Positions 5,504 to 42,020 of a stretch of DNA of 64,000 nt are shown here, piece after piece (positions within the stretch are counted from its first letter, which is position 1; the number at the start of each line of letters is the position of its first letter). Under the pieces are notes generated by a model. The model was not told where the DNA came from. It made no database searches and saw only the letters and a list, made by a program, of their open reading frames with translations. The stretch covers positions 3,188,792-3,252,791 of the forward strand of contig NZ_CWKH01000001.1 in NCBI RefSeq assembly GCF_001245615.1, given 5' to 3'. The DNA is from Mycolicibacterium neworleansense (GTDB lineage: Bacteria; Actinomycetota; Actinomycetes; Mycobacteriales; Mycobacteriaceae). The position numbers were made by a program, and so were the translations under genes.

Positions 5504-8500
5504 AGGTATTCGACCTCCTCGGCCCGCTGCCGCAGCCCAACAGCACCACGGTGCTGGAGGCCAGCGCGGGCACCGGCAAGACGTTCGCGCTGGCGGGTCT
5601 GGTGACCCGGCTGGTGGCCGAGGGCACCGCGACGCTGGATCAGATGCTGCTCATCACGTTCGGTCGCGCCGCCAGCCAGGAATTGCGGGAGCGGGTGCGG
5701 GCCCAGATCGTCGGTGCGCTGGTGGCGTTGGCGGATCCGTCGCGGGCCGACAATGATCTGCTGCGGTATCTGGTCGCCGCGGATCAGCAGGCCCGCGCGC
5801 AGCGGCTGCGGGATGCGCTGGCCGGCTTCGATGCCGCGACCATCGCCACCACGCATCAGTTCTGCCAGATCGTGCTGAAGTCCCTCGGCGTCGCCGGGGA
5901 CAGCGATTCCGGTGTGACGCTGGTCGAGAGTCTTGACGACCTGGTGTGCGAGATCGTGGACGACCTGTATCTCGCGCATTTCGGTTCTCAACGCGATGTC
6001 CCTGAGCTCGGGTACGCCGAGGCACTCCGGCTGGCACGTGTCGTGGTGGCCAATCCCGCGACCGAGTTGCGACCGCTGGATCCCGAACCGGAGTCCCCGG
6101 CGGCCATCCGCGTGGGGTTCGCGCGGGCGGTGCTGGCGGAGTTGGAGATTCGTAAACGCCGCCGCGGTGTGCTGGGCTATGACGATCTGCTGACCCGGCT
6201 GGCCGGAGCACTGCAGTCCGACGATTCGGCCGCCCGGGTGCGGATGGCACAGCGCTGGCCGATCGTGATGGTCGACGAGTTCCAGGACACCGACCCGGTG
6301 CAGTGGCAGGTGATCGAGCGGGCCTTTTCGGGGAGGTCCACCCTGATCCTGATCGGCGATCCCAAGCAGGCGATCTACGCGTTCCGCGGCGGGGACATCG
6401 ACACCTATCTGCGGGCCGCCGCGACCGCCGGCGACAAGCAGACGCTGGGCACCAACTGGCGCAGCGACAGTGTGCTGGTGGACCGGTTGCAGGCGGTGCT
6501 GCGCGGTGCCGAGCTCGGCGGTCCGGACATCGTGGTGCACGACGTGCAGGCGAACCACCAGGGCCACCGGCTGGTTGGCGCGCCGCACAACGATCCGTTC
6601 CGGCTGCGGGTGGTGCGGCGAAACCGTGCCGGCACCAAGGTGATTCCGATCGCCGACCTACGCGGCCACATCGGCAGGGACCTGGCCGCCGACATCGGTG
6701 CGCTGCTCAGCAGTGGCGCCACCTTCGACGGCGATCCCTTGCAGGCCCGCGACATCGCGGTGATCGTCGAGACGCACAAGGATGCCCGGGCCTGTCACAC
6801 CGCACTGCTGGAGGCCGGCATCCCCGCGGTCTACACCGGGGATTCGGACGTCTTCAACTCCGAGGCCGCCGAGGACTGGCTGTATCTGCTGGAGGCCTTC
6901 GACCAGCCGCACCGTCCCGGGTTGGTGCGGGCCGCGGCGGCCACGATGTTCTTCGGGGAGACCGCGGAAACCCTTGCCGCGGGCGGGGATGCGTTGACCG
7001 ACCGGGTCGCCGACACGCTGCGCACCTGGGCCGGCCATGCCCGGGAACGCGGGGTGGCGGCGATCTTGGAGGCCGCGCAGCTGGCCGGCATGGGTAAGCG
7101 GGTGCTGTCCTGGCAGGGCGGTGAGCGGTTGATGACCGACCTGGCCCACATGACCCAACTGCTCGGCGATACCGCGCACCGGGAGGGTTTCGGGCTGGCC
7201 GCGCTGCGGGACTGGCTGCGCACACAACGCGACGAGGGCGGCGGCACATCCGAGCGCAACCGGCGGCTGGACAGCGACGCAGCCGCGGTGCAGATCATGA
7301 CGGTGTGGGTGAGCAAGGGCCTGCAGTTCCCGATCGTGTACCTGCCGTTCGCGTTCAATCGGTATGTGCCGGAACCGGATCTGGTGTTGTTCCACGACGA
7401 GGGCGTGCGCTGCCTGCAGGTCGGCGGCCCGGAGGCCGGGCGGGCCGAGGCGGCCGCCGATGACAGCCGCCTTACCTATGTGGCGATGACGCGGGCCCAG
7501 TCGCAGGTGGTGGCATGGTGGGCGCCATCGAACGACGAGCCGAACGGCGGTCTGTCGCGGCTGCTGCGCGGGCGCGCCCCCGGGCAGGCCGAGGTGCCGG
7601 ACCGGTGCGGACCGGCCAAGGTATCCGACGACGATGCGCTGGCACGGTTGCGGGCCTGGGAAGCCGTGGGCGGCCCGGTGCTGGAGGAGTCGGTGATCGG
7701 TGCGGCGACGCCGGTGCCGGTGCGCGCGATCCCGGATGATCTGGCGGCGCGGCATTTTCATCGCTCCATCGACACCACGTGGCGGCGCACGTCGTACTCG
7801 GGGCTGCTGCGCGCGGCCGAGGAGGACGGGCACGGCGGGGTGTCCAGCGAGCCAGAGGTCGCCGAGCTGGATGACGAGTCGACCGACATCGCCGTCATCG
7901 CGCCCGGCCAGGGCGCCGACGTGCCCTCGCCGATGGCATCGTTGCCCACCGGTGCTGCGTTCGGGTCGCTCGTGCACGCGGTGCTGGAGACCGCCGACCC
8001 GCTGGCCGCCGACCTGACGGCCGAACTGCGGGCCGAGGTGGGCCGTCACGCCGCCCGCTGGCCGGTCGAGGTCTCCGCCGACGAGCTGGCGGCCGCGCTG
8101 GTGCCCATGCATGACACCCCGCTGGGTCCGTTGGCGCCCGGTGTGACGCTGCGCCAGATCGGACCGGCCGACCGGTTGTGCGAGCTGGACTTCGAGTTCC
8201 CCATGGCCGGTGGCGATCTGCGCGGTGGCGACTTCGCCCGGCTTGCCGATGTCGGTGCGCTGCTGGACGAGCATCTGCCGGCCGGGGATCCGATGGCGGT
8301 GTACGCCGAGCGACTGTCGACCGGACTGCTCGGCAATCAGCCGCTGCGCGGCTATCTGTCCGGTTCGGTGGATGTGGTGCTGCGGATCGGGCGGCGCTTC
8401 GTCGTCGTCGACTACAAGACCAACTGGCTCGGTACCGGCGACGCGACGCTCACCGCGGCCGACTACGGGCGGGACCGCATGGTCGAGGCCATGCTCCACT

Positions 8501-8739
8501 CGGACTATCCACTGCAAGCGTTGTTGTACAGCGTTGTGCTGCACCGGTTCCTGAGCTGGCGGTTGAAGGACTACGACCCGGCCACCCACCTGGGCGGGGT
8601 GATGTATCTGTTCGTGCGCGGGATGTGCGGGGCACAGACACCCGTCGTCGGCGGGCACCCGGCCGGGGTGTTCAGCTGGGAACCGCCCGCGGCGTTGGTG
8701 ATCGCGATGTCAGAGCTACTGGATCAGGGAGCCTCGTGA
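5500..8739 (+). CDS. recB: RecB, beta subunit of exodeoxyribonuclease V
   Basis: This is a 1079-residue UvrD/Rep-type 3'-5' helicase with a C-terminal RecB nuclease domain. Walker A is ASAGTGKT at residues 21-28. Motif II is VDEFQDTDPVQW, near residue 257. Helicase blocks QIMTVWVSKGLQFPIVYLP and RLTYVAMTRAQ lie in the second half. The nuclease motif VVVDYKTNWLG places the metal-binding aspartate at about D971. GTG 5500 overlaps the recC TGA (GTGA) and fits VKVFDLLGPLPQPNSTTVLEA as the N-terminus. A GTG further upstream would overlap recC by about 40 bases. All expected motor and nuclease motifs are intact. Confidence 0.95.
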   Translation: MKVFDLLGPLPQPNSTTVLEASAGTGKTFALAGLVTRLVAEGTATLDQMLLITFGRAASQELRERVRAQIVGALVALADPSRADNDLLRYLVAADQQARAQRLRDALAGFDAATIATTHQFCQIVLKSLGVAGDSDSGVTLVESLDDLVCEIVDDLYLAHFGSQRDVPELGYAEALRLARVVVANPATELRPLDPEPESPAAIRVGFARAVLAELEIRKRRRGVLGYDDLLTRLAGALQSDDSAARVRMAQRWPIVMVDEFQDTDPVQWQVIERAFSGRSTLILIGDPKQAIYAFRGGDIDTYLRAAATAGDKQTLGTNWRSDSVLVDRLQAVLRGAELGGPDIVVHDVQANHQGHRLVGAPHNDPFRLRVVRRNRAGTKVIPIADLRGHIGRDLAADIGALLSSGATFDGDPLQARDIAVIVETHKDARACHTALLEAGIPAVYTGDSDVFNSEAAEDWLYLLEAFDQPHRPGLVRAAAATMFFGETAETLAAGGDALTDRVADTLRTWAGHARERGVAAILEAAQLAGMGKRVLSWQGGERLMTDLAHMTQLLGDTAHREGFGLAALRDWLRTQRDEGGGTSERNRRLDSDAAAVQIMTVWVSKGLQFPIVYLPFAFNRYVPEPDLVLFHDEGVRCLQVGGPEAGRAEAAADDSRLTYVAMTRAQSQVVAWWAPSNDEPNGGLSRLLRGRAPGQAEVPDRCGPAKVSDDDALARLRAWEAVGGPVLEESVIGAATPVPVRAIPDDLAARHFHRSIDTTWRRTSYSGLLRAAEEDGHGGVSSEPEVAELDDESTDIAVIAPGQGADVPSPMASLPTGAAFGSLVHAVLETADPLAADLTAELRAEVGRHAARWPVEVSADELAAALVPMHDTPLGPLAPGVTLRQIGPADRLCELDFEFPMAGGDLRGGDFARLADVGALLDEHLPAGDPMAVYAERLSTGLLGNQPLRGYLSGSVDVVLRIGRRFVVVDYKTNWLGTGDATLTAADYGRDRMVEAMLHSDYPLQALLYSVVLHRFLSWRLKDYDPATHLGGVMYLFVRGMCGAQTPVVGGHPAGVFSWEPPAALVIAMSELLDQGAS

Positions 8740-10400
8740 TGTTGGTCGCTTTCGCCGAGATCCTCGAACCCGCCGATGTGCACGTGGGCAGGCGGCTGAG
8801 CACGCTCGCCGAGGAGACCGATCCGTCGGTCATCTTGGCGCTGGCGCTGGCAGTGCGGGCGCTGCGCGGCGGTTCGGTATGTGTGGACCTGCGTTCGGTG
8901 GCCGAGCAGACCCAGTTGCCGCAGTTGCCGTGGCCCGATGCCGACGAGTGGCTGGCGGCCGTGGCGGCCAGCCCGCTGCTGGGCACGCCCCCGGTGCTGC
9001 GGTTGTTCGGAGACTTGCTCTACCTCGACCGGTACTGGTTGGAGGAACAGCAGGTGTGCGACGACGTGCTGGCCTTGGTGGGCGCGCGGCCTGGCGGTTC
9101 GGCGCCCGATGTGGCGCGGCTGTTCCCGCCCGGTTTCGAGGAGCAGCGGGCGGCGGCGAAAGTGGCGTTGTCGCAGGGGTTGACGGTGCTGACGGGCGGG
9201 CCGGGAACGGGCAAGACCACCACGGTGGCGCGGCTGTTGGCGCTGCTGGCCGAGCAGGCCGCGCTGGCCGGTCGCCCGTCGCTGCGGATCGCGCTGGCCG
9301 CGCCGACGGGTAAGGCCGCGGCCCGGCTGCAGGAGGCCGTGCAGCTTGAGGTGAGCCGGCTCGATGCCGTGGACCGGGAGCGGATCTCGGGTCTACAGGC
9401 CACCACGCTGCACCGGCTGCTGGGGCCGCGCCCGGATACGTCGTCACGGTTCCGTCATCACCGGGCAAATCGGTTGCCGCACGACGTGATCGTCATCGAC
9501 GAGACCTCGATGGTGTCGCTGACCATGATGGCCCGTCTGCTGGAAGCCGTGCGTCCGCAAACCCGGCTACTGCTGGTCGGTGATCCCGATCAGCTGGCCT
9601 CGGTGGAAGCCGGCGCGGTGTTGGCCGATCTGGTCGACGGGCTGGGCTCACGCGGGGTGGCGGCCCTGCAAACCTCGCACCGGTTCGGTGAGTCGATCGG
9701 CGCGCTGGCGTCAGCAATCCGGGCCGGCGACGCTTCAGCGGCGGTCGAGGTGTTGGCGGCCGGCGGCGAGCACGTCGAGTGGGTGTCGGCGGAGGCAGGC
9801 GAGCGGCTGCGGGAAGTGCTTGTGCCACATGCCCTTGCGCTGCGCCAGGCGGCGATCCTCGGGGATGGGCGTGCGGCGCTGGACATCCTCGACGAGCACC
9901 GGTTGTTGTGCGCGCACCGGCGTGGCCCGTCTGGCGTCGCGCAGTGGAACCGTCAGGTACAACGCTGGCTCGCCGAGGCGACCGGGGAGCCCATGTGGGC
10001 ATCGTGGTACGTGGGACGGCCAATCCTGGTGACGGCCAATGACTATGGGCTCAAGCTCTACAACGGCGACACCGGCGTCACGATCGCCACCCCGGACGGC
10101 CTGCGGGCCATCGTTGGTGGCACCGTGGGCGGGTCCGCGTCATTCGCGACGGGCCGGCTCACCGAGGTGGAGACCATGCACGCCATGACGATCCACAAGT
10201 CTCAGGGCAGTCAGGCCGATGAGGTGACCGTGCTGCTACCGCCGGAAGATTCCCGCTTGTTGACGAGGGAGCTCTTCTACACCGCCGTCACCCGGGCCAA
10301 GACGCGAGTTCGCGTGGTGGGGTCCGAAGCGGAGATCCGCGCGGCTATCGTCCGGCAGGCAGTCCGAGCGACCGGCCTGCGAAAGCGGCTGAAGCTCTAA
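8739..10400 (+). CDS. recD: RecD, alpha subunit of exodeoxyribonuclease V
   Basis: This is a 553-residue SF1B 5'-3' helicase subunit. Walker A is GGPGTGKT at residues 153-160 (Lys159), followed by the APTGKAAARLQEAV motif and the DEAx-type VIVIDETSMVS. LLLVGDPDQLASVEAG is motif III. The C-terminal block is MTIHKSQGSQADEVTVLLP, then LFYTAVTRAKTRV. ATG 8739 shares one base with the recB stop (TGATG), and GTG 8736 is the only close alternative. Gene order recC-recB-recD with overlaps at both junctions points to one transcript and fixed subunit stoichiometry. Confidence 0.95.
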   Translation: MLVAFAEILEPADVHVGRRLSTLAEETDPSVILALALAVRALRGGSVCVDLRSVAEQTQLPQLPWPDADEWLAAVAASPLLGTPPVLRLFGDLLYLDRYWLEEQQVCDDVLALVGARPGGSAPDVARLFPPGFEEQRAAAKVALSQGLTVLTGGPGTGKTTTVARLLALLAEQAALAGRPSLRIALAAPTGKAAARLQEAVQLEVSRLDAVDRERISGLQATTLHRLLGPRPDTSSRFRHHRANRLPHDVIVIDETSMVSLTMMARLLEAVRPQTRLLLVGDPDQLASVEAGAVLADLVDGLGSRGVAALQTSHRFGESIGALASAIRAGDASAAVEVLAAGGEHVEWVSAEAGERLREVLVPHALALRQAAILGDGRAALDILDEHRLLCAHRRGPSGVAQWNRQVQRWLAEATGEPMWASWYVGRPILVTANDYGLKLYNGDTGVTIATPDGLRAIVGGTVGGSASFATGRLTEVETMHAMTIHKSQGSQADEVTVLLPPEDSRLLTRELFYTAVTRAKTRVRVVGSEAEIRAAIVRQAVRATGLRKRLKL

Positions 10401-10546
10401 ACAGCGCGTCCGGCGAAAAATGCGCCGGAGATGAGGCCGATCGCGAGTGCCAGGGTAGGTAGGCCCATCGCCGCAGCCGTTACGACGCCGGCGACCGCGC
10501 CGATGCCGAGCACCAGCAGAAGTACGCCCACAAATGCACCGACCAT
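10397..10546 (-). CDS. Small two-helix membrane protein
   Basis: This is a predicted 49-residue protein beginning MVGAFVGVLLLVLGIGAVAG and consisting almost wholly of two hydrophobic segments. ATG 10546 was chosen because GGAAAGGG lies about 9 bases upstream. A TTG start at 10621 would add 25 residues including a CxxC-type pair (CDRC). Its stop overlaps the recD stop on the other strand, so the two genes converge. No family is recognised. The short length means it could be a chance frame, but the ribosome binding site and clean hydrophobic pattern support it. Confidence 0.5.
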   Translation of the reverse strand: MVGAFVGVLLLVLGIGAVAGVVTAAAMGLPTLALAIGLISGAFFAGRAV

Positions 10547-33963: not shown

Positions 33964-36222
33964 TTACCCGAGCGCAACGGCACTAACAACGTCCCACCAA
34001 GTCACGACAATCGGCGCCCCGGCACGGTCGTCCGCCGTCAGGAGTTCGAGATCGATCGAACCAACCCACTTGGGCAGCGGTTCGACGAAATCGAGTTCGG
34101 CTACGAAATACAGATTCCCGCGTGGATTCGGGTACCCAGCCGCCATCAAGTCAGCTGCCGTTGCTGGTCGCCAGCGCACTAACCGCGCGATCCGAGCCAC
34201 TTGGAGGGCGCCATTCCGGTTCTCGTACAAGAGCAGCAGCTTGGCCCCGAGCTCTCGTCCACCGACCTCGACGGCGCCAATTCGGTTATCAGCACGTATG
34301 TTGTACTGCCGCACCCGTTCTATCCATTCACGATGCTCAAAGCTTCGGACGAAACCAAGGAGAACGTCGGTATCGGCAGGAGGTTCATCTAGGAATTCAG
34401 TCGTCGGTGCCGACGTGAGGGTGGGCTCGCCTGGACGATGTACGATCGCGGTCCAGAAGCGATGCCGTTCATCACGCGTGACCTGGCTGGCGGCATGGTC
34501 CAGCACATCGTTGAAGAACTGATCAAGCGCTTCCGATGACGCCCGTAGGCCGTCGCTGCTCGGCCTCAGCGGGAATGCGCCGATACCGGGCAACAATTCG
34601 TTGAAGCCCGGATGTCGTCGAATGCTGAGGATCTCTGACCCTGGATACAACACGTACGCTCCCGCCGTTCGCGCGATCGCATCTCGATATGCGTGCATCT
34701 TTAGTAGGTCATCGCGCTTGGCGGCCCCAGAGGTCGTCGGCCCCTCTTCCGAGTCGTCCGAATCAGCTGCTGACGTCAGCTGCGTAAGGTTGTCCACGCG
34801 ATACTTCGCATCGAAATGCAACCAGACCTCGAGATCCTTTGTGGGCACGCTCGACGGCGTGCTGCCTTCCGGTCGAACACGCACCGAGCAGTCGGGGCGC
34901 ATCGCTCGGCTCCATGACCCCCGTCGATCGTCTCGTCCGGCAAAGGTTCGATTGAAGTAGACATCGACCTGCAGCAGACGGCCTCCCCGTTTGATCGTCC
35001 ACGACAGCTTCGACGCACGCCCCGACCGCATTGTGAGGGACATGCCATCTCCAGCGACGGTGAATGCGCGCGCTGTTCGGTCGTCCCCGCACACTCTCCC
35101 GAGTGAATCCACCACCGCGAGAAAGCACCAAAACTCATAAAGCGTGGCGATGTTCCGTTGCGACGCTGAAAAGATATCGGCCATGTGCCCGGGATCAAAA
35201 CGCAGCGTAGGGCCAGATTCAGTCAACGCAAACGTCCTGAACACTTCCCGGTAGCCCGCGCGCTTGAGCAACACCTGGTCCGACGTCGGCATTCTTCCTA
35301 GTGAGCTGACCTCTCGGAAGATCGGGTGCGCAAGGTATTCGTCCAATTGGGCGCCGATTTCAGCAGCGATCTGCAGACCGCGACGGAGAGGTCCGGACTC
35401 GACATTCTGTGAGGCTAAAGACAGCACGTCAAGCAATTCCAACGCGACGGCTCGCCAGCGCTCCAACGCAAACTTAACGAACTGGTTCGCCGAATTGTCC
35501 ACACTGGCTTCGGCACGACCACGGGTCAGAGCGACGGGCAGAGATGCGAGTGCCGACGGACCGCCCGTCCATGGGACCCGCGGACCCGGTGCACAAACCG
35601 CACGACGAAAAGCGGATCCCGCCGGAAACGGTGATCCGATCGGACGAACCTCCTGCTCCGACACCCATGTTCGGTGTGGCTCAGAGGTGATACGCGCAAT
35701 CGCGGCTTCGCACGCTGCACCCTGCAGGTATGCCGCGATCACGGCAAAGCGGTGGTAGAGCAGTTCGGCTGGCAGCTCGCTTGGCGCAAGCTCCAGCACA
35801 CTAGGCGCGAACCCTTGCAACACTGCCTCAGCGGCGAACGTGGAGATGTCAGTGAGCATCTGGCGATATTCAGTCTGGTGGTCCAGCTTGACTGCCAGAA
35901 CTTCGACATCCACAGTCGCTGCTAGACCGGCAGCTCGATCAACAACTTGGATACGAATACGCCCAACCGCTTGACCCGGACGTAACCGCCCCTTCATCCA
36001 GCTCGAATCATCAGGATCGAACAGCTCGCGCGGCTCGATATCGACATTCGTTGCGCCATTGCTTATTTCGTAGCGGTAAGTCGCACCTTCATGCAGCGAA
36101 ACGTCTCCGCCCGACGACAACGCGGTGTCTTGTCGACCCGGAAGGTTGGCGACAAGCAGCTCGCCGACAACCTGGCCTTCTCGTGTTCGAAGCGGTAACA
36201 GCACCGCCGAATCCTGAGACAT
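33964..36222 (-). CDS. DUF2357 PD-(D/E)XK nuclease, McrC-like partner
   Basis: This is a 752-residue protein matching the DUF2357/COG1700 group of predicted defence nucleases. Residues 1-300 are the DUF2357-type N-terminal region with beta-rich and helical parts. The nuclease core is near residues 355-530: RPDCSVRV gives Asp444, and VWLHFDAKYRVDNL gives Asp471-Ala-Lys473, a complete PD-(D/E)XK site. The next helix carries LLKMHAYRDAIA, and AYVLYPGSE is another conserved core block. In this family the nuclease is paired with an McrB-like motor. Here the EVE-McrB gene ends 3 bases upstream, so one operon is certain. It probably cuts DNA, presumably modified or foreign DNA selected by the partner. 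Confidence 0.8.
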   Translation of the reverse strand: MSQDSAVLLPLRTREGQVVGELLVANLPGRQDTALSSGGDVSLHEGATYRYEISNGATNVDIEPRELFDPDDSSWMKGRLRPGQAVGRIRIQVVDRAAGLAATVDVEVLAVKLDHQTEYRQMLTDISTFAAEAVLQGFAPSVLELAPSELPAELLYHRFAVIAAYLQGAACEAAIARITSEPHRTWVSEQEVRPIGSPFPAGSAFRRAVCAPGPRVPWTGGPSALASLPVALTRGRAEASVDNSANQFVKFALERWRAVALELLDVLSLASQNVESGPLRRGLQIAAEIGAQLDEYLAHPIFREVSSLGRMPTSDQVLLKRAGYREVFRTFALTESGPTLRFDPGHMADIFSASQRNIATLYEFWCFLAVVDSLGRVCGDDRTARAFTVAGDGMSLTMRSGRASKLSWTIKRGGRLLQVDVYFNRTFAGRDDRRGSWSRAMRPDCSVRVRPEGSTPSSVPTKDLEVWLHFDAKYRVDNLTQLTSAADSDDSEEGPTTSGAAKRDDLLKMHAYRDAIARTAGAYVLYPGSEILSIRRHPGFNELLPGIGAFPLRPSSDGLRASSEALDQFFNDVLDHAASQVTRDERHRFWTAIVHRPGEPTLTSAPTTEFLDEPPADTDVLLGFVRSFEHREWIERVRQYNIRADNRIGAVEVGGRELGAKLLLLYENRNGALQVARIARLVRWRPATAADLMAAGYPNPRGNLYFVAELDFVEPLPKWVGSIDLELLTADDRAGAPIVVTWWDVVSAVALG

Positions 36223-36224
36223 GG

Positions 36225-38372
36225 CTACTCAGCGAAACTTACGAACTGATTCGCGCGAACTGACTCGATCATGCGGGTGATCTTCTGATGCGAAATGGGC
36301 AGCCGCGGGGCCGAGCCCGCTCCCAGAGCCAGCTCCCCCAAGGTATTCAGAACTGGTTCGACGCGTCGTCGTGACCCGTGCACCTTCGGCAGGACCTTCT
36401 GCATCATCGCGAGATCTATTGCGGTATGTACGTCAGGGTCTCCCGTCGCCGCGAAAAACGCGCAGAACCGGAGGATCTCGTACAGCGTCCGGTGCCCGAA
36501 CTCTTGATTGGCACCTGCCAAGATCGCGTGCACGTCTTTGAGCGTCGACACAATCACATCGCGATCCGGGTGCGGACGCTCCTGCTGCCAATCGTCCTTT
36601 TCCGCCAGCGATGCAAAGGCGCGCACTCGGTGGTCCTCACCTGACGGCGCTGCAATGGGTCGTTGGAGGTCAGCGTCGAGTTCGTCAGCAGTCACGCGAA
36701 ACTCGAAAGTAAATGCCCTGTCGAGAACCTTCGGCGAGAACATGTACGTCGTTTCATCTACGTTGACTGTGCCGACAACGAACAGGTTCCGTGGCAGCGG
36801 GAGCCGCTGCGCTTCCACGTCACGCAGGACCCACTGACGAGAGGGTTGATCGAAGACCAGATCCGGTAAGACCGGACGGCGCGATTCGACCCCCGAGAGA
36901 AAGTCCGAGAAATATCGCTCGACGTGGGCCAAGTTCATCTCGTCCAAGATCAACAAGTACGGGTGCGCGGGATCGTTCGCCGCGCGAAGAACGAATTCGA
37001 AGGCTTCTGGAACAAACCAGACCGGTGCTCCGGACGCGGACGTACGGAGCGCATCCTCGTACCCGAAGATGGATTCCGGGCCCGTCCAGTCTGGCCGCAC
37101 AGGTACCACGACGTGGCGATGTCGTCCGTCTTCGCCGGTGCCGAACCATTCACCGAGTCTCATTGCGAGCTGGGTCTTGCCGGAACCAGCGAGCCCGGTC
37201 AGGATCACGAAAGGTTTGGCCAGCAGACTGCTGACAAACGATCGAACGAGGTTCGACCCTGTTGGGAAACGAAGTCCCGAAGCATTCACCGCGTCGGCGA
37301 AGTCTTGAAACAGTTCGTCTGGCATCGGCGTCTCCGGTGACTGTCTGGGAGCAGGGGTCGAAACCGGAGGTAAGTGTTCCGCGAGCTCGGGGAACCGCTG
37401 GGCCAATTCATAGACGAACTCGTCCTCCAGACGGACCAAGTAAACCTGCTGAACGGATCCGGCGACAGTGAACGGCGAACCCTGCCTTATGCGGGCGCCC
37501 TCGTCGATAGCGGCAAGCGCGACCGGCTCATTCAGTTCCTCATACTGCGACTCGACCAGTCTGCCCGCAGCATCCCAGGATTGGTCGTCGAGCGGATTCG
37601 GCGCCGACGTCGCCGCTGCGGTGACACGGCTTACCGCTCGCAATGAGCCATTGCTGTAATGCAGAACGACGTCGCCTACACGAACCTCATCCATGGTGTC
37701 CCAGTGGTATTGCGGGCGACCCGCTTTATTCAGCATCGGCGCCCACAGGAACCCGCCATCGCGTTCTTTCGTGTAGGTGGCACCTTGATTCACCCACCAG
37801 ACCGAAGCCTGCTGCCTGAGGAAGGTAGCGCCCTGCTCAGTCAATTCGCCTCTGCGATCAATAAGCCCACTCTCGATGAGGAGTTCTCGGTAGCGAGCGC
37901 CCTGAGATTCGAAGGTTCGGTCGGCTTGCCACTGGCCGGTACTCGCCTGCATTGCAAGCGCTCGCCCTAAATCGTCGTTGGAGAAGCTGGCAGGCAAGTC
38001 ACGAACAACTTGAAGGGCGATGCGGACATCCCCAGCGATCGGAGCGCTGCCCTCAGATAGCGCGTCACGAAGGACACCGGCCTGGATCTCATTAACTATC
38101 CAGGGGTTGCTTCCGTCAACATTGTCGGCGTATGCGGTACCCGATTCAGTGAGCTTCCATCTACCCTCGTCGTCAACGGCGAGCCCAACCATCCGCGCGA
38201 ACCTCAGACAATCGGTAGCTCGCCTCTTCGGACTCTCATGCGGACCGTCGGACTTGAACCGTCGCTCTGGATCGTCGACGAGCAGCTCATCGACAGTGGC
38301 CGAGCCAAGCTCGCGAAGACGGGCAAGCAGCAGATTGCCATAGCTGAACTTTAGAGTCGGTATGGACAGCAC
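36225..38372 (-). CDS. EVE-domain McrB-type AAA+ GTPase
   Basis: This is a 715-residue fusion protein. Residues 1-90 look like a winged-helix module (FSYGNLLLARLRELGSATVD). Residues about 190-325 form an EVE/PUA-like domain, starting WWVNQGATYTKERDGGFLWA, with DEVRVGDVVLHYSNGSLRAV in the middle. EVE domains bind modified cytosines. Residues 370-620 are an McrB-type AAA+ motor: Walker A GLAGSGKT (Lys399), Walker B LLILDEMNLAHVERYF (Asp477), and sensor VVGTVNVDETTYMFSPKVLD with an R finger (DRAF). The McrB family hydrolyses GTP. The recogniser-motor pairs with the downstream nuclease, making a type IV (modification-dependent) restriction system likely. Confidence 0.85.
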   Translation of the reverse strand: MLSIPTLKFSYGNLLLARLRELGSATVDELLVDDPERRFKSDGPHESPKRRATDCLRFARMVGLAVDDEGRWKLTESGTAYADNVDGSNPWIVNEIQAGVLRDALSEGSAPIAGDVRIALQVVRDLPASFSNDDLGRALAMQASTGQWQADRTFESQGARYRELLIESGLIDRRGELTEQGATFLRQQASVWWVNQGATYTKERDGGFLWAPMLNKAGRPQYHWDTMDEVRVGDVVLHYSNGSLRAVSRVTAAATSAPNPLDDQSWDAAGRLVESQYEELNEPVALAAIDEGARIRQGSPFTVAGSVQQVYLVRLEDEFVYELAQRFPELAEHLPPVSTPAPRQSPETPMPDELFQDFADAVNASGLRFPTGSNLVRSFVSSLLAKPFVILTGLAGSGKTQLAMRLGEWFGTGEDGRHRHVVVPVRPDWTGPESIFGYEDALRTSASGAPVWFVPEAFEFVLRAANDPAHPYLLILDEMNLAHVERYFSDFLSGVESRRPVLPDLVFDQPSRQWVLRDVEAQRLPLPRNLFVVGTVNVDETTYMFSPKVLDRAFTFEFRVTADELDADLQRPIAAPSGEDHRVRAFASLAEKDDWQQERPHPDRDVIVSTLKDVHAILAGANQEFGHRTLYEILRFCAFFAATGDPDVHTAIDLAMMQKVLPKVHGSRRRVEPVLNTLGELALGAGSAPRLPISHQKITRMIESVRANQFVSFAE

Positions 38373-38467
38373 GGTCTCAGGCTAGTGCGACAGTCCAGCG
38401 ACTGGCGGCATTCAACACTGCACTCGCGCAATACTCCGCAGGTCTTCATCGCCTAGCGCCTGAATAC

Positions 38468-38496
38468 TTGAACGTGGAAAGTGCTCCGCCTACGGT
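38468..38496 (+). promoter_or_regulatory. Putative SigA-type promoter of the GIY-YIG gene
   Basis: TTGAAC (38468-38473) and TACGGT (38491-38496) are separated by 17 bases, giving a near-consensus -35 box and a TANNNT -10 box. The likely start site is about 30 bases before ATG 38533, which has AGGGGAT as ribosome binding site. The 160-base gap (38373-38532) also holds the promoter of the divergent McrB-nuclease operon, so the two units share one control region. Confidence 0.5.
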
Positions 38497-38532
38497 GGCC
38501 ACTATTCGACCACGCTGAGGGGATAGGCCAAT

Positions 38533-39339
38533 ATGACCGACGAGCTGGTTGGACAGGACGATGGTCTTGGTGCAGTTCGACCGTCTCGAGAGGTGCAGGC
38601 CGAAATCGTTGAGCTCCTTCGCAACGACACGACTCGGTTAGGTCAAGTTTTCCAGGGCCGGGAGCGCGAACTCAGTGCGGACGACATTGCGGCCGAGCTT
38701 GGTGTTGCCACCTCCGGCTTCGTATTCAACTACACCCGGACAATCCGTTCCCTCGTTGACGGCGACTTGGCGACAGCACCCACCCTCGCCTTACAAGCTG
38801 CACGAACGTTCCGTCGCCTCCTCCGAGACCACGATTGGTCACCCGAGGCCCATAGATACCTCGAACGAAATCTCGCCGAACTGGAGCGCCGTGCCAATGA
38901 TGAGACAGCTCGGACAGTGGAAGCCGAACAAGCAAAAGCACAAACGGAACGTGCAGAGTCTGAGAACGTGCCGGGGGTCTACGTGTACGCACTGCCCCAC
39001 TACCTGCGCTACCCATACGAAAAGAGCGGACGAACGCTGATGAAAGTCGGACGCAGCGACAGCGACGTGATCCAGCGATTCATGAACCAAACCCGCACCA
39101 CCGCGCTGCCCGAGGAGCCGATCCTGCTCAGGATCTATCAGACAGACCCTCAATCGTCAGCTATCGCTGAGGACCGTTTCCATCGGCTTCTCGAAGCAGC
39201 CGATCATCACAGGAGCGTTGCTCGAACAGCTGGACGCGAATGGTTCGTCACTAGCACTCGGTTTTTGGACGAGGTGGCTATGACTCTCGCTCTTCGAATA
39301 GAAGTGGTGAACGAAGCGGAGATCACCGACGACGAATAG
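38533..39339 (+). CDS. GIY-YIG (T5orf172-type) nuclease-like protein
   Basis: This is a 268-residue protein. Residues 47-75 resemble a helix-turn-helix (ELSADDIAAELGVATSGFVF), followed by an alpha-helical linker (about 85-145). The C-terminal domain, residues 148-250, matches the T5orf172/MUG113 branch of GIY-YIG nucleases: GVYVYALP (core Tyr pair), TLMKVGRSDSDVIQRF (K-x-G-x-S), AIAEDRFHRLL (catalytic Glu213) and REWFVTSTRF. It stands alone on the plus strand, head-to-head with the EVE-McrB operon, and has similar lower-GC composition. It may be a third component, a regulator of the system or an independent defence gene. Confidence 0.75.
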   Translation: MTDELVGQDDGLGAVRPSREVQAEIVELLRNDTTRLGQVFQGRERELSADDIAAELGVATSGFVFNYTRTIRSLVDGDLATAPTLALQAARTFRRLLRDHDWSPEAHRYLERNLAELERRANDETARTVEAEQAKAQTERAESENVPGVYVYALPHYLRYPYEKSGRTLMKVGRSDSDVIQRFMNQTRTTALPEEPILLRIYQTDPQSSAIAEDRFHRLLEAADHHRSVARTAGREWFVTSTRFLDEVAMTLALRIEVVNEAEITDDE

Positions 39340-39790: not shown

Positions 39791-40004
39791 ATCGATTGTG
39801 CAGCAATCGATTCCCACGTCTGACCCGGAAGCGATGGCCAAAGCGGTGTGGGCGCTGGTCCACGGCCTGGCGTTCTTGCATCTCGATGGCAAGTTCGACG
39901 CGTCCTCCCCTGACGCCGTCGCCGCCACGGTCCGCGCCCGGTGTCCGCAGCGCTCGGACAGCTCGCCTGACGGGCCGAGCGCCTACCAGCTCGCCTTCGC
40001 GTAA
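39756..40004 (+). pseudogene. TetR-family regulator, 3' remnant
   Basis: The plus-strand frame reads LARGRISEYLRSIVQQSIPT, then SDPEAMAKAVWALVHGLAFL and HLDGKFDASSPDA. The WALVHGLAFLHLDGK segment is the hallmark of the C-terminal WHG domain of a TetR subgroup. The N-terminal DNA-binding part is missing, and the frame has a TGA at 39708. Only about 80 residues remain, ending at TAA 40002-40004 and overlapping the convergent SDR stop by 22 bases. The regulator is non-functional. The loss abuts the right edge of the accessory region. Confidence 0.65.
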
Positions 40005-41401
40005 TCCTTCAAGAAACACCCGTACAGATCCTCGCCCAACTCCCCACGCACGATCGGGTCGTACACGCGCGCAGCACCATCCACCAGATCCAGCGGTGCG
40101 TGGAAACCCTCTTCGGCCAGCCGCAGCTTGGTCGGGTGCGGACGCTCGTCGGTGATCCACCCGGTGTCGACGGCCGTCATCAGGATGCCGTCCTGCTCCA
40201 GCATCTCCCCGGAACTGGTGCGGGTCAGCATGTTCAGCGCGGCCTTGGCCATGTTGGTGTGTGGATGACCGGGCCCCTTGTAGCCGCGGCCGAACTGGCC
40301 TTCCATCGCTGACACGTTCACCACGTACTTGCGCCGGGCCGACGAAGCGGCCAGCGCCGGGCGCAGCCGGCTCACCAGAATGAACGGCGCGGTCTGATTG
40401 CACAGCTGCACTTCGAGCAGTTCCATCGCGTCGACCTCGTGCACGCGTTGGGTCCAGCTGTTCACCGACGCGGTATCGGGCAGCAGCCCACCCGCGTCGA
40501 TCGCAATCCCGGCCGCGATGCGCTCCGGCGAGGCGCTGCGGGCCTCCAAAGCAAGCGACGTCAGCGCGTGCGCCGTGGGATGTTCGCCGAGGCTGCCGGC
40601 CAGGGCGTGCGGATGCGCGTCACTGACATGGTCGAAGGTGACCACGTCCACCAATGCCGGCGGCGGCGTGCGCTCGGCCTCGACCAGCGCGGCATACGAC
40701 CCCGGCGGGCGACGCACCGTCTGCGCCGCGTTGTTGATCAGGATGTCCAGCGGCCCCTGCGCGGCCACCTCGTCGGCCAGGGCCACCACCTGGGCCGGGT
40801 CCCGCAGGTCGATCCCCACCACCCGCAGCCGGTGCAACCAGTCGGCGCTGTCCTCCATCGCGGCGAAGCGGCGCACCGCGTCGTTGGGAAACCGGGTGGT
40901 GATCGTGGTGTGCGCGCCGTCGCGCAACAGCCGCAGCGCGATGTACATCCCGATCTTCGCGCGCCCACCGGTGAGCAGGGCCCGGCGCCCGGTCAGATCG
41001 GTGCGGGCATCGCGCTTGGCCCGGTTGACCGCGGCGCAGTCGGGACAAAGCTGGTGGTAGAAGGCATCGACGACGGTGTGGTGGTTTTTGCAGATGTAGC
41101 AGGCCCGCGACCGCAGCAGTGTGCCCGCAGTGGCCCCGACCGCGGTGGACACCAGCGGCAACCCCTGGGTTTCGTCGTCGATTCGTCCGGGGGCACCCGT
41201 GGCCGTGGCGGCGATGACGGCGCGGTCGGCGGCCGCAACCGCGTCGCGTGCGGCGGCCCGGCGCTCCTTCTTCAGCGCCTTGAACATCTTCGCGGTGGCC
41301 CGGCGCACAGCAACGGCGTCGGGGTGCTCGGGAGGCAGCGTGTGCACCTCGGACAGCACCCGCAGGCACGTTCTGAGCTGGTCGGGGTCGATCGCGTTCA
41401 C
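39983..41401 (-). CDS. Short-chain dehydrogenase/reductase with zinc-ribbon N-terminus
   Basis: This is a 472-residue protein. Residues 1-100 are a helical extension rich in Arg and Ala (FKALKKERRAAARDAVAAAD). A zinc-ribbon-like CYIC...CPDC pair (residues about 100-122) follows. The SDR Rossmann fold begins at RRALLTGGRAKIGMYIALRL, with ILINNAAQTV (NNAG-like) and a distal VVNVSAMEGQF serine block. A YxxxK-type site is YKGPGHPHTNMAKAALNMLT, with K in NMAKAAL. ATG 41401 is used. The extension and ribbon are unusual for SDRs. Similar long SDRs occur in actinobacteria, but their substrates are unknown. Confidence 0.8.
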   Translation of the reverse strand: MNAIDPDQLRTCLRVLSEVHTLPPEHPDAVAVRRATAKMFKALKKERRAAARDAVAAADRAVIAATATGAPGRIDDETQGLPLVSTAVGATAGTLLRSRACYICKNHHTVVDAFYHQLCPDCAAVNRAKRDARTDLTGRRALLTGGRAKIGMYIALRLLRDGAHTTITTRFPNDAVRRFAAMEDSADWLHRLRVVGIDLRDPAQVVALADEVAAQGPLDILINNAAQTVRRPPGSYAALVEAERTPPPALVDVVTFDHVSDAHPHALAGSLGEHPTAHALTSLALEARSASPERIAAGIAIDAGGLLPDTASVNSWTQRVHEVDAMELLEVQLCNQTAPFILVSRLRPALAASSARRKYVVNVSAMEGQFGRGYKGPGHPHTNMAKAALNMLTRTSSGEMLEQDGILMTAVDTGWITDERPHPTKLRLAEEGFHAPLDLVDGAARVYDPIVRGELGEDLYGCFLKDYAKASW

Positions 41402-41465: not shown

Positions 41466-41894
41466 TCAGTCGTAGATGACGTCCAGCCCTTGCCGTCGAA
41501 GGTCAGCCAACCCGTCTCGCATGGCTTGTAGCTGCTCGGGCGTGTGCCCCACCCAGTCGGTGATCTCGCCGACGATTTTCACCGGCTCGCGAGTGCGGTA
41601 GGAGTGGGTCGGGTTCCCGGGTAGCTTCTTGTCGGTCACGTTCGGGTCGTCTTCCAGCACTCCTTCGGGTTCGACGATGTAGATGCGGCCGGGCTCCTCA
41701 CCGGCGGCCATCTCGGCGCCCCAAACCGCGGCATCCAGGGTGCGGGTGACGTACACGTGGTTCATGATCCGTCCGGCTTCGTAGTTCGACTCACGTCCGG
41801 GCACCAAATACTCCCCCACCGCCAGATCCGCCTTGGTGCCGTGCAGCAACGCACCGGACTCGTGCACTTCAAATGGTTTCGGCGTACTCGTCAC
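41466..41894 (-). CDS. arr: Rifampin ADP-ribosyltransferase Arr
   Basis: This is a 142-residue enzyme that transfers ADP-ribose from NAD+ to the rifamycin ansa hydroxyl, giving rifampicin resistance. VHESGALLHGTKADLAVG, NHVYVTRTLDAAVWGAE and RIYIVEPEG.LEDDPNV are the signature blocks. His18, Tyr48 and Asp83 match the M. smegmatis Arr residues His19, Tyr49 and Asp84. GTG 41894 is preferred because GGGGGAG lies just upstream. The longer frame to 41960 adds an unrelated leader. It is chromosomal and has no mobile element nearby, as in other rapid-growing mycobacteria. Confidence 0.92.
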   Translation of the reverse strand: MTSTPKPFEVHESGALLHGTKADLAVGEYLVPGRESNYEAGRIMNHVYVTRTLDAAVWGAEMAAGEEPGRIYIVEPEGVLEDDPNVTDKKLPGNPTHSYRTREPVKIVGEITDWVGHTPEQLQAMRDGLADLRRQGLDVIYD

Positions 41895-42020
41895 AATCTC
41901 CCCCTTCGTCACGGACCGAAAGATTGTGCAGCACGTCAGGGGCCTTGCCGCAAGCCCCACCCTCGGCCGTATAGTGAGAGTGGGAGCAGATCGAAACTCC
42001 CTCGCGCCCAGCTAATCCGA

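What the first reader, a model, noticed from the sequence alone, without database searches (positions are those of the whole stretch)
33964..39339. EVE-McrB plus DUF2357 nuclease operon beside a divergent GIY-YIG gene
Seen: an EVE-type domain (residues about 190-325) fused to an McrB-like AAA+ motor, and 3 bases on, a DUF2357 protein with a complete PD-(D/E)XK site (Asp444, Asp471, Lys473). Known: McrBC and EVE-containing systems cut DNA with modified bases. Inference: a modification-dependent restriction system in which EVE reads the base, the motor moves and the nuclease cuts. The lower-GC, head-to-head GIY-YIG/T5orf172 gene is not a standard partner, and the trio may be an undescribed three-component system. 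This is the best candidate for a new system in the window.
Basis: partly seen in the sequence, partly recalled or inferred. Interest (0 to 1): 0.8.

Follow-up and report, generated by a model that had tools for sequence, protein, structure and literature searches.

The report
Mycobacterial EVE-type McrBC restriction pair
This is a two-gene bacterial defence system that most likely reads methylated or hydroxymethylated cytosine in foreign DNA and cuts that DNA; the third gene beside it looks like an independent neighbour rather than a part of the machine.

Summary
The three genes are real and placed as stated. Two form a type IV (modification-dependent) McrBC pair. McrB has helical/winged N-terminal domains, an EVE reader and an AAA+ motor; McrC has DUF2357 and an intact PD-(D/E)XK site. 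EVE-McrB fusions are in print as the commonest EVE defence architecture. New here: all seven pocket/wedge residues of the crystallised 5mC/5hmC reader VcaM4I are present, and the motor has the shortened NxD motif, a branch with no characterised member as of 2024. In a mycobacterial sample, carriers of this McrB have a C5-cytosine methylase match less often (2 of 13) than non-carriers (60 of 111; Fisher p 0.016, kinship uncorrected, p 0.11 with very strong matches only). Adenine methylases are not depleted. This fits a 5mC target.

The trio is not supported as one system. McrC is found with McrB in 76 of 80 loci, the GIY-YIG gene in 1 of 80, a broken copy. It also occurs without this McrBC. It is probably a separate defence nuclease. 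Weak hints of a link remain: a relative is head-to-head with an EVE-HNH enzyme in one genome, and its N-terminal module is fused to a McrB motor in another.

The parts
36225..38372 (-). mcrB-like gene, 715 aa: N-terminal helical/winged domains, EVE, AAA+ motor with NxD motif (N537-V-D539-E540)
37809..38372 (-). McrB residues 1-188: winged-helix-like units (inference from predicted secondary structure; not fold-searched alone); not part of the ORF called in the Actinoplanes relative L016
37398..37808 (-). McrB residues 189-325: EVE domain; T199 E203 W210 P212 W266 Q309 Y311 equal VcaM4I T11 E15 W22 P24 W82 Q128 Y130
36228..37265 (-). McrB residues 370-715: AAA+ motor (Walker A 393-400, Walker B 473-480, NxD 537-539; motif names recalled)
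33964..36222 (-). mcrC-like gene, 752 aa
35230..35991 (-). McrC residues 78-331: DUF2357
34633..35145 (-). McrC residues 360-530: PD-(D/E)XK nuclease, D444 D471 K473
38373..38532 (.). 160-base space between the divergent McrB and GIY starts; no sigma-70-like promoter in a consensus scan
38533..39339 (+). GIY-YIG/T5orf172 gene, 268 aa; neighbour, probably not a component of the pair
38584..38772 (+). [not shown]
38962..39333 (+). [not shown]

Best explanation
33964-38372 is a self-sufficient type IV restriction pair of the McrBC kind. McrB's EVE domain flips a modified cytosine (5mC or 5hmC) into its pocket (inferred from identical pocket residues). The AAA+ ring, stimulated by the DUF2357 part of McrC, moves on DNA by NTP hydrolysis (inferred from the McrBC family; the nucleotide is unknown because this is an NxD motor). 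The PD-(D/E)XK domain of McrC makes the cut (inferred from intact catalytic residues). The N-terminal helical region probably adds DNA contacts (inference). The divergent gene is a separate DNA-binding GIY-YIG nuclease of the mobile defence pool that shares the islet and is not needed by the pair.
Against: No experiment. The C5-MTase depletion rests on 13 carriers and is not corrected for kinship; it is not significant if only very strong matches (E < 1e-50) count: 1 of 13 against 35 of 111, p 0.11 (at 1e-30, 47 of 111, p 0.016). Two carriers (G085 with a full-length match, G166 with a partial one) do have such a match. The pocket Glu is Ala or Gly in 4 of the 18 aligned rows that keep at least six of the seven residues, although E15A impairs VcaM4I. 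No NxD motor has been characterised (PMC11090510), so NTP use and movement on DNA are assumptions; CoCoNuTs of that branch are predicted to target RNA. Model pTM for McrB is only 0.55.
Confidence: 0.76

Rival explanations
1. A three-component system: the HTH-GIY-YIG protein is a second effector or regulator of the EVE-McrBC pair, expressed from the shared divergent region.
For: Head-to-head placement with a 160-base space; the same arrangement, with a broken GIY gene, in M. porcinum, and probably the trio in Mycobacteriaceae bacterium Msp059 (both proteins on a 9888-base contig). A 34%-identical GIY relative in G948 is head-to-head with an EVE-HNH enzyme matching VcaM4I at E 3.1e-86. The GIY protein's N-terminal module is fused to a McrB motor with McrC beside it in G599 (37%, E 6e-22).
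Against: GIY hit in 1 of 80 McrB loci, 7 of which have under 1 kb before the match; at 2 of 13 orthologue loci in the genus sample, one broken; McrB open beside a broken GIY; 8 genomes with GIY-family hits lack this McrB; in the order of G948 only G948 itself matched, 1 of 151.
Confidence: 0.12
2. The GIY gene is itself a modification-dependent (type IV) endonuclease, working like the wH-GIY-YIG enzymes Ahi29725I/Apa233I that cut near 6mA, so the islet holds two independent type IV systems.
For: Similar order (DNA-binding N-terminus, GIY-YIG C-terminus); such enzymes are shown in PMC11037411 (section 23); conserved catalytic-type residues; restriction-type neighbours in several loci.
Against: The model's N-terminus is all-helical and weakly resembles sigma-4/LuxR HTH, without the strands of a wing; no sequence comparison with those enzymes was made; all 13 sampled carriers of the pair, this genome included, have an adenine-methylase family match, several of them weak.
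Confidence: 0.3
3. The GIY gene is a free-standing homing-type or selfish nuclease that hitch-hikes beside defence genes.
For: A paper on homing endonuclease genes of phages uses the word T5orf172 82 times (PMC10448857, search listing and start of abstract only); patchy distribution and broken or partial copies.
Against: No phage record match and none of 18 pattern-matched viral stretches confirmed; 58-91% identity among the 120 listed relatives, with repeated defence-type neighbours.
Confidence: 0.25
4. The pair targets RNA or acts in abortive infection, as predicted for other NxD-branch systems (CoCoNuTs).
For: NxD motif and the predictions of PMC11090510.
Against: No long coiled-coil arm in the McrB model (longest helices about 17 residues); intact PD-(D/E)XK residues; EVE pocket equal to that of a DNA 5mC/5hmC reader; C5-MTase depletion.
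Confidence: 0.09

Closest known systems
E. coli K-12 McrBC (type IV)
   Same: Two genes, McrB first; AAA+ motor on McrB, DUF2357 + PD-(D/E)XK on McrC
   Different: EVE plus N-terminal helical domains instead of DUF3578/ADAM; NxD instead of NxxD motif
EVE-McrB proteins (Bell et al. 2020, PMC7641849, passages)
   Same: EVE as specificity domain fused to the McrB motor; described as the most common EVE defence architecture, in nearly 300 genera
   Different: An added ~188-residue N-terminal region, seen here in the mycobacterial relatives and not in the ORF of L016
VcaM4I EVE-HNH endonuclease (6YEX; PMC7897488, passages)
   Same: EVE fold and all seven pocket/wedge residues
   Different: Single-chain HNH nuclease, no motor
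NxD-branch McrBC / CoCoNuT systems (Bell et al. 2024, PMC11090510, passages and section 6)
   Same: NxD motif followed by E
   Different: No long coiled coils in the model, intact nuclease residues, no helicase, HEPN or methyltransferase family among the neighbours searched
wH-GIY-YIG type IV enzymes Ahi29725I, Apa233I (PMC11037411, passages and section 23)
   Same: For the third gene: N-terminal DNA-binding domain plus C-terminal GIY-YIG
   Different: All-helical HTH in the model, T5orf172 subtype; 6mA dependence untested
PADLOC candidate PDC-M26A
   Same: McrB profile match E 1.1e-37
   Different: Listed without description; best stretch is the motor, residues 375-499

Membership tests
McrBC type IV restriction | McrB-like AAA+ motor | tested here: met
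   E. coli McrB chains, residues 376-556, E 2.6e-5, and 1e-7 with profile; below the curated cut-off of NCBIfam's McrB equivalog (23 of 637 bits)
McrBC type IV restriction | Adjacent McrC with DUF2357 and PD-(D/E)XK | tested here: met
   Pfam E 1.1e-35 and 3.9e-31; D444/D471/K473. All three residues are kept in the window plus 27 of the loci L001-L031, but those ORFs were picked with a D-x-K-Y pattern, so only D444 is a free test; the four loci without such an ORF (L002, L005, L009, L011) are cut by contig ends
McrBC type IV restriction | Specificity domain for modified DNA | tested here: met
   EVE domain; binding itself not tested
McrBC type IV restriction | NTP-dependent cleavage of modified DNA | not testable with these tools
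   needs biochemistry
EVE 5mC/5hmC reader (VcaM4I type) | Pocket/wedge residues T11 E15 W22 P24 W82 Q128 Y130 | tested here: met
   7 of 7 in the window; 7 of 7 in 14 of 23 aligned rows, 6 of 7 in 4 more, fewer in 5
NxD branch of McrB motors | N-x-D in place of N-x-x-D, usually followed by E or D | tested here: met
   N537 V538 D539 E540; N, D and E invariant in 23 of 23; no tree was built
CoCoNuT system | Long coiled coils on the motor protein, McrC often without active PD-(D/E)XK, nuclease or helicase partners | tested here: not met
   model without long coiled coil, intact nuclease residues, neighbours are SDR, Arr and a NadR-like gene
Three-component EVE-McrBC-GIY system | Recurrent co-occurrence of the three genes | tested here: not met
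   1 of 80 loci; 2 of 13 orthologue carriers including this one; 0 of 8 genomes with GIY-family hits
wH-GIY-YIG m6A-dependent endonuclease | Winged-helix m6A reader | tested here: inconclusive
   helical HTH in the model, weak matches only
GIY-YIG nuclease | Conserved GIY/YIG-equivalent, Arg and Glu residues | tested here: met
   G148 Y150 K171 G173 R182 E213 in 32 of 32; their roles are assigned from recall

The most novel reading that the evidence does not exclude
HTH-GIY-YIG proteins are an exchangeable second arm of EVE/McrB modification-dependent loci in actinobacteria: the same N-terminal module guides either a GIY-YIG nuclease standing head-to-head with an EVE enzyme (EVE-McrBC in this window, EVE-HNH in G948) or a McrB motor with McrC (G599), so the islet would deliver two cuts under one targeting logic.
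Probability: 0.13. Interest if true: 0.6.

Novelty: new member of a known kind. Interest (0 to 1): 0.36.

Why it matters
The McrBC pair is a compact, open, two-gene system with the NxD motif, a branch of which no motor had been characterised by 2024 (PMC11090510), and its reader pocket matches a crystallised 5mC/5hmC reader. It offers a simple way to ask whether NxD McrBC systems restrict modified DNA, which nucleotide they use, and whether they shape which mycobacteria can keep cytosine methylases. The third gene is useful mainly as a caution: a neighbour in a defence islet is not a component.

Full report
Observation. The three genes are present as described. McrB is 36225-38372 on the minus strand, McrC 33964-36222 on the minus strand with two bases between them, and the GIY-YIG gene 38533-39339 on the plus strand. 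No Pfam family reaches its curated cut-off for McrB, but solved structures show its parts: residues 191-322 match the EVE domain of VcaM4I (6YEX) and 376-556 the motor of E. coli McrB. McrC carries DUF2357 and PDDEXK_7 with Asp444, Asp471 and Lys473. The third protein carries T5orf172.

Motor type. The window reads N537-V-D539-E540, with N, D and E invariant in 23 of 23 aligned relatives. Bell et al. 2024 (PMC11090510; passages, section 6) split McrB motors by this motif and state that no NxD motor has been characterised. I built no tree, so the placement rests on the motif. It is not a CoCoNuT by its anatomy: no long coiled coil in the model and an intact nuclease.

Distribution of the pair. 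A scan of genome contigs kept the best 80 of 276 relatives. McrC is detected in 76 of 80; the other four matches have 2 to 1145 bases left before the contig ends. Fifteen loci (L001-L015) match near full length (L011 to residue 686) at 73-84% identity; all are labelled mycobacteria except L009, an Acidobacteria MAG contig. Of six flanking window genes only PnuC hit any locus, once and at 22%, so the pair stands in other settings elsewhere. With GC 0.596 against 0.662/0.668 in the flanks, it looks like a transferred cassette; no insertion boundary or empty site was found. In a sample of 297 genomes of the genus, 13 have a near-full-length orthologue at 78-100% identity; one more, G248, has residues 2-233 only, in a 250-residue frame. 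The two samples share genomes (L002 and G165 have the same 5774-base contig).

Self-avoidance test. If the pair cuts 5mC DNA, carriers should tend to lack C5-cytosine methylases. PF00145 is found in 2 of 13 carriers, in 17 of 31 non-carriers and in 43 of 80 further non-carriers. Pooled, 2 of 13 against 60 of 111 gives a two-sided Fisher p of 0.016. With matches of E below 1e-30 the counts are 1 of 13 and 47 of 111 (p 0.016); below 1e-50, 1 of 13 and 35 of 111 (p 0.11). The control N6_Mtase is in 13 of 13 carriers and 53 of 67 non-carriers; several carrier matches are weak, and strong ones (below 1e-50) are 5 of 13 and 33 of 67, p 0.55. So carriers are not simply poor in methylases. The window's own genome has no PF00145 match. 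Against: kinship is not corrected, the threshold matters, and G085 has a full-length C5-methylase match in the same genome as an open pair.

The third gene. A protein search found 611 relatives, of which the best 120 are listed; those with organism names are actinobacteria. The model is a helix-turn-helix, a helical linker and a GIY-YIG domain (mean pLDDT 83.7), with weak fold matches to sigma region 4 and Slx1 and invariant catalytic-type residues. In the genus sample 11 of 297 genomes match: the window's genome with the whole gene, G165 (M. porcinum) with pieces at the same divergent place, G271 with an N-terminal part, G273 with a 36-residue fragment, and seven with weak matches (E above 1e-5), all over the N-terminal part. 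Alignment of L002 with the window runs from McrB through the gap into the GIY gene at 76% (with gaps) and stops near GIY residue 177. I read this as one old arrangement in which the GIY gene decayed while McrB stayed open; the L002 contig ends within McrC, so its McrC could not be checked whole. Msp059 probably has the trio too, judged only from names and an equal contig length. An order-wide sample of 397 and a class-wide sample of 394 genomes each had 8 matching genomes, this one and several shared ones included. Eight of the genomes with whole or part GIY-family hits were searched for McrB: none has this orthologue.

Neighbours of the GIY family. I inspected the 9 regions (L137-L145) and two plasmid regions. 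Whole relatives: L137, L138, L139, L143, L144 and L102. L144 is head-to-head with an EVE-HNH enzyme matching VcaM4I at E 3.1e-86. L143 overlaps an EcsC gene and an AAA_21 gene, with a type ISP enzyme nearby; L139 lies between two helicase genes; L137 has a ResIII protein upstream, not directly adjoining; L138 and L102 have no clear defence gene at their side. Partial ones: in L140 the N-terminal module is fused to a McrB motor followed by McrC; L145 has a distant T5orf172 protein after HsdM; L141 (N-terminal part) is near an N6 methylase and L142 (fragment) near an HNH gene; L103 is a fragment. So among six whole relatives one has an EVE partner and three others have restriction- or helicase-type neighbours. 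That fits an independent defence nuclease best and leaves a small chance for a real link with EVE systems. In the order of G948 only G948 itself matched, 1 of 151 genomes.

Comparison with the known. EVE-McrB fusions are reported in nearly 300 genera (PMC7641849, passages). McrB followed by a DUF2357-PD-(D/E)xK McrC is the classical layout (PMC11090510). A DNA-binding domain plus GIY-YIG acting as a type IV enzyme is shown for Ahi29725I and Apa233I (PMC11037411; passages, section 23); the third gene may work like these, but its N-terminus is not shown to be of their kind.

Verdict. An open new member of a known kind with a sharp target prediction, and a neighbour that is not a demonstrated component.

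Noticed in passing
L140 (G599) 7271-10232: McrB motor (596 aa) whose first ~140 residues are the helix-turn-helix module of the GIY protein, followed by a McrC (PF10117, E 5e-54), near GmrSD_N and UvrD-helicase genes: a domain swap between GIY-YIG and McrB proteins.
   Followed up: partly
L144 (G948) 8639-10425: VcaM4I-like EVE-HNH endonuclease head-to-head with a GIY/T5orf172 relative, mirroring the window arrangement.
   Followed up: partly
window 41466-41960: Rifampin ADP-ribosyltransferase gene (arr), NCBIfam rifampin_ARR_Ms above cut-off, next to an SDR-like gene at 39983-41401.
   Followed up: no
window 36225-38372: A database entry (P0059) for this protein is 575 aa long (100% identity over 80%), possibly a mis-called start that drops N-terminal residues.
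   Followed up: no
L115 (G248): Only residues 2-233 of the McrB orthologue remain, in a 250-residue frame: perhaps a decayed copy.
   Followed up: no
L009: A contig labelled Acidobacteria MAG carries the mycobacterial-type pair at 80% identity; possibly a mis-binned contig.
   Followed up: no
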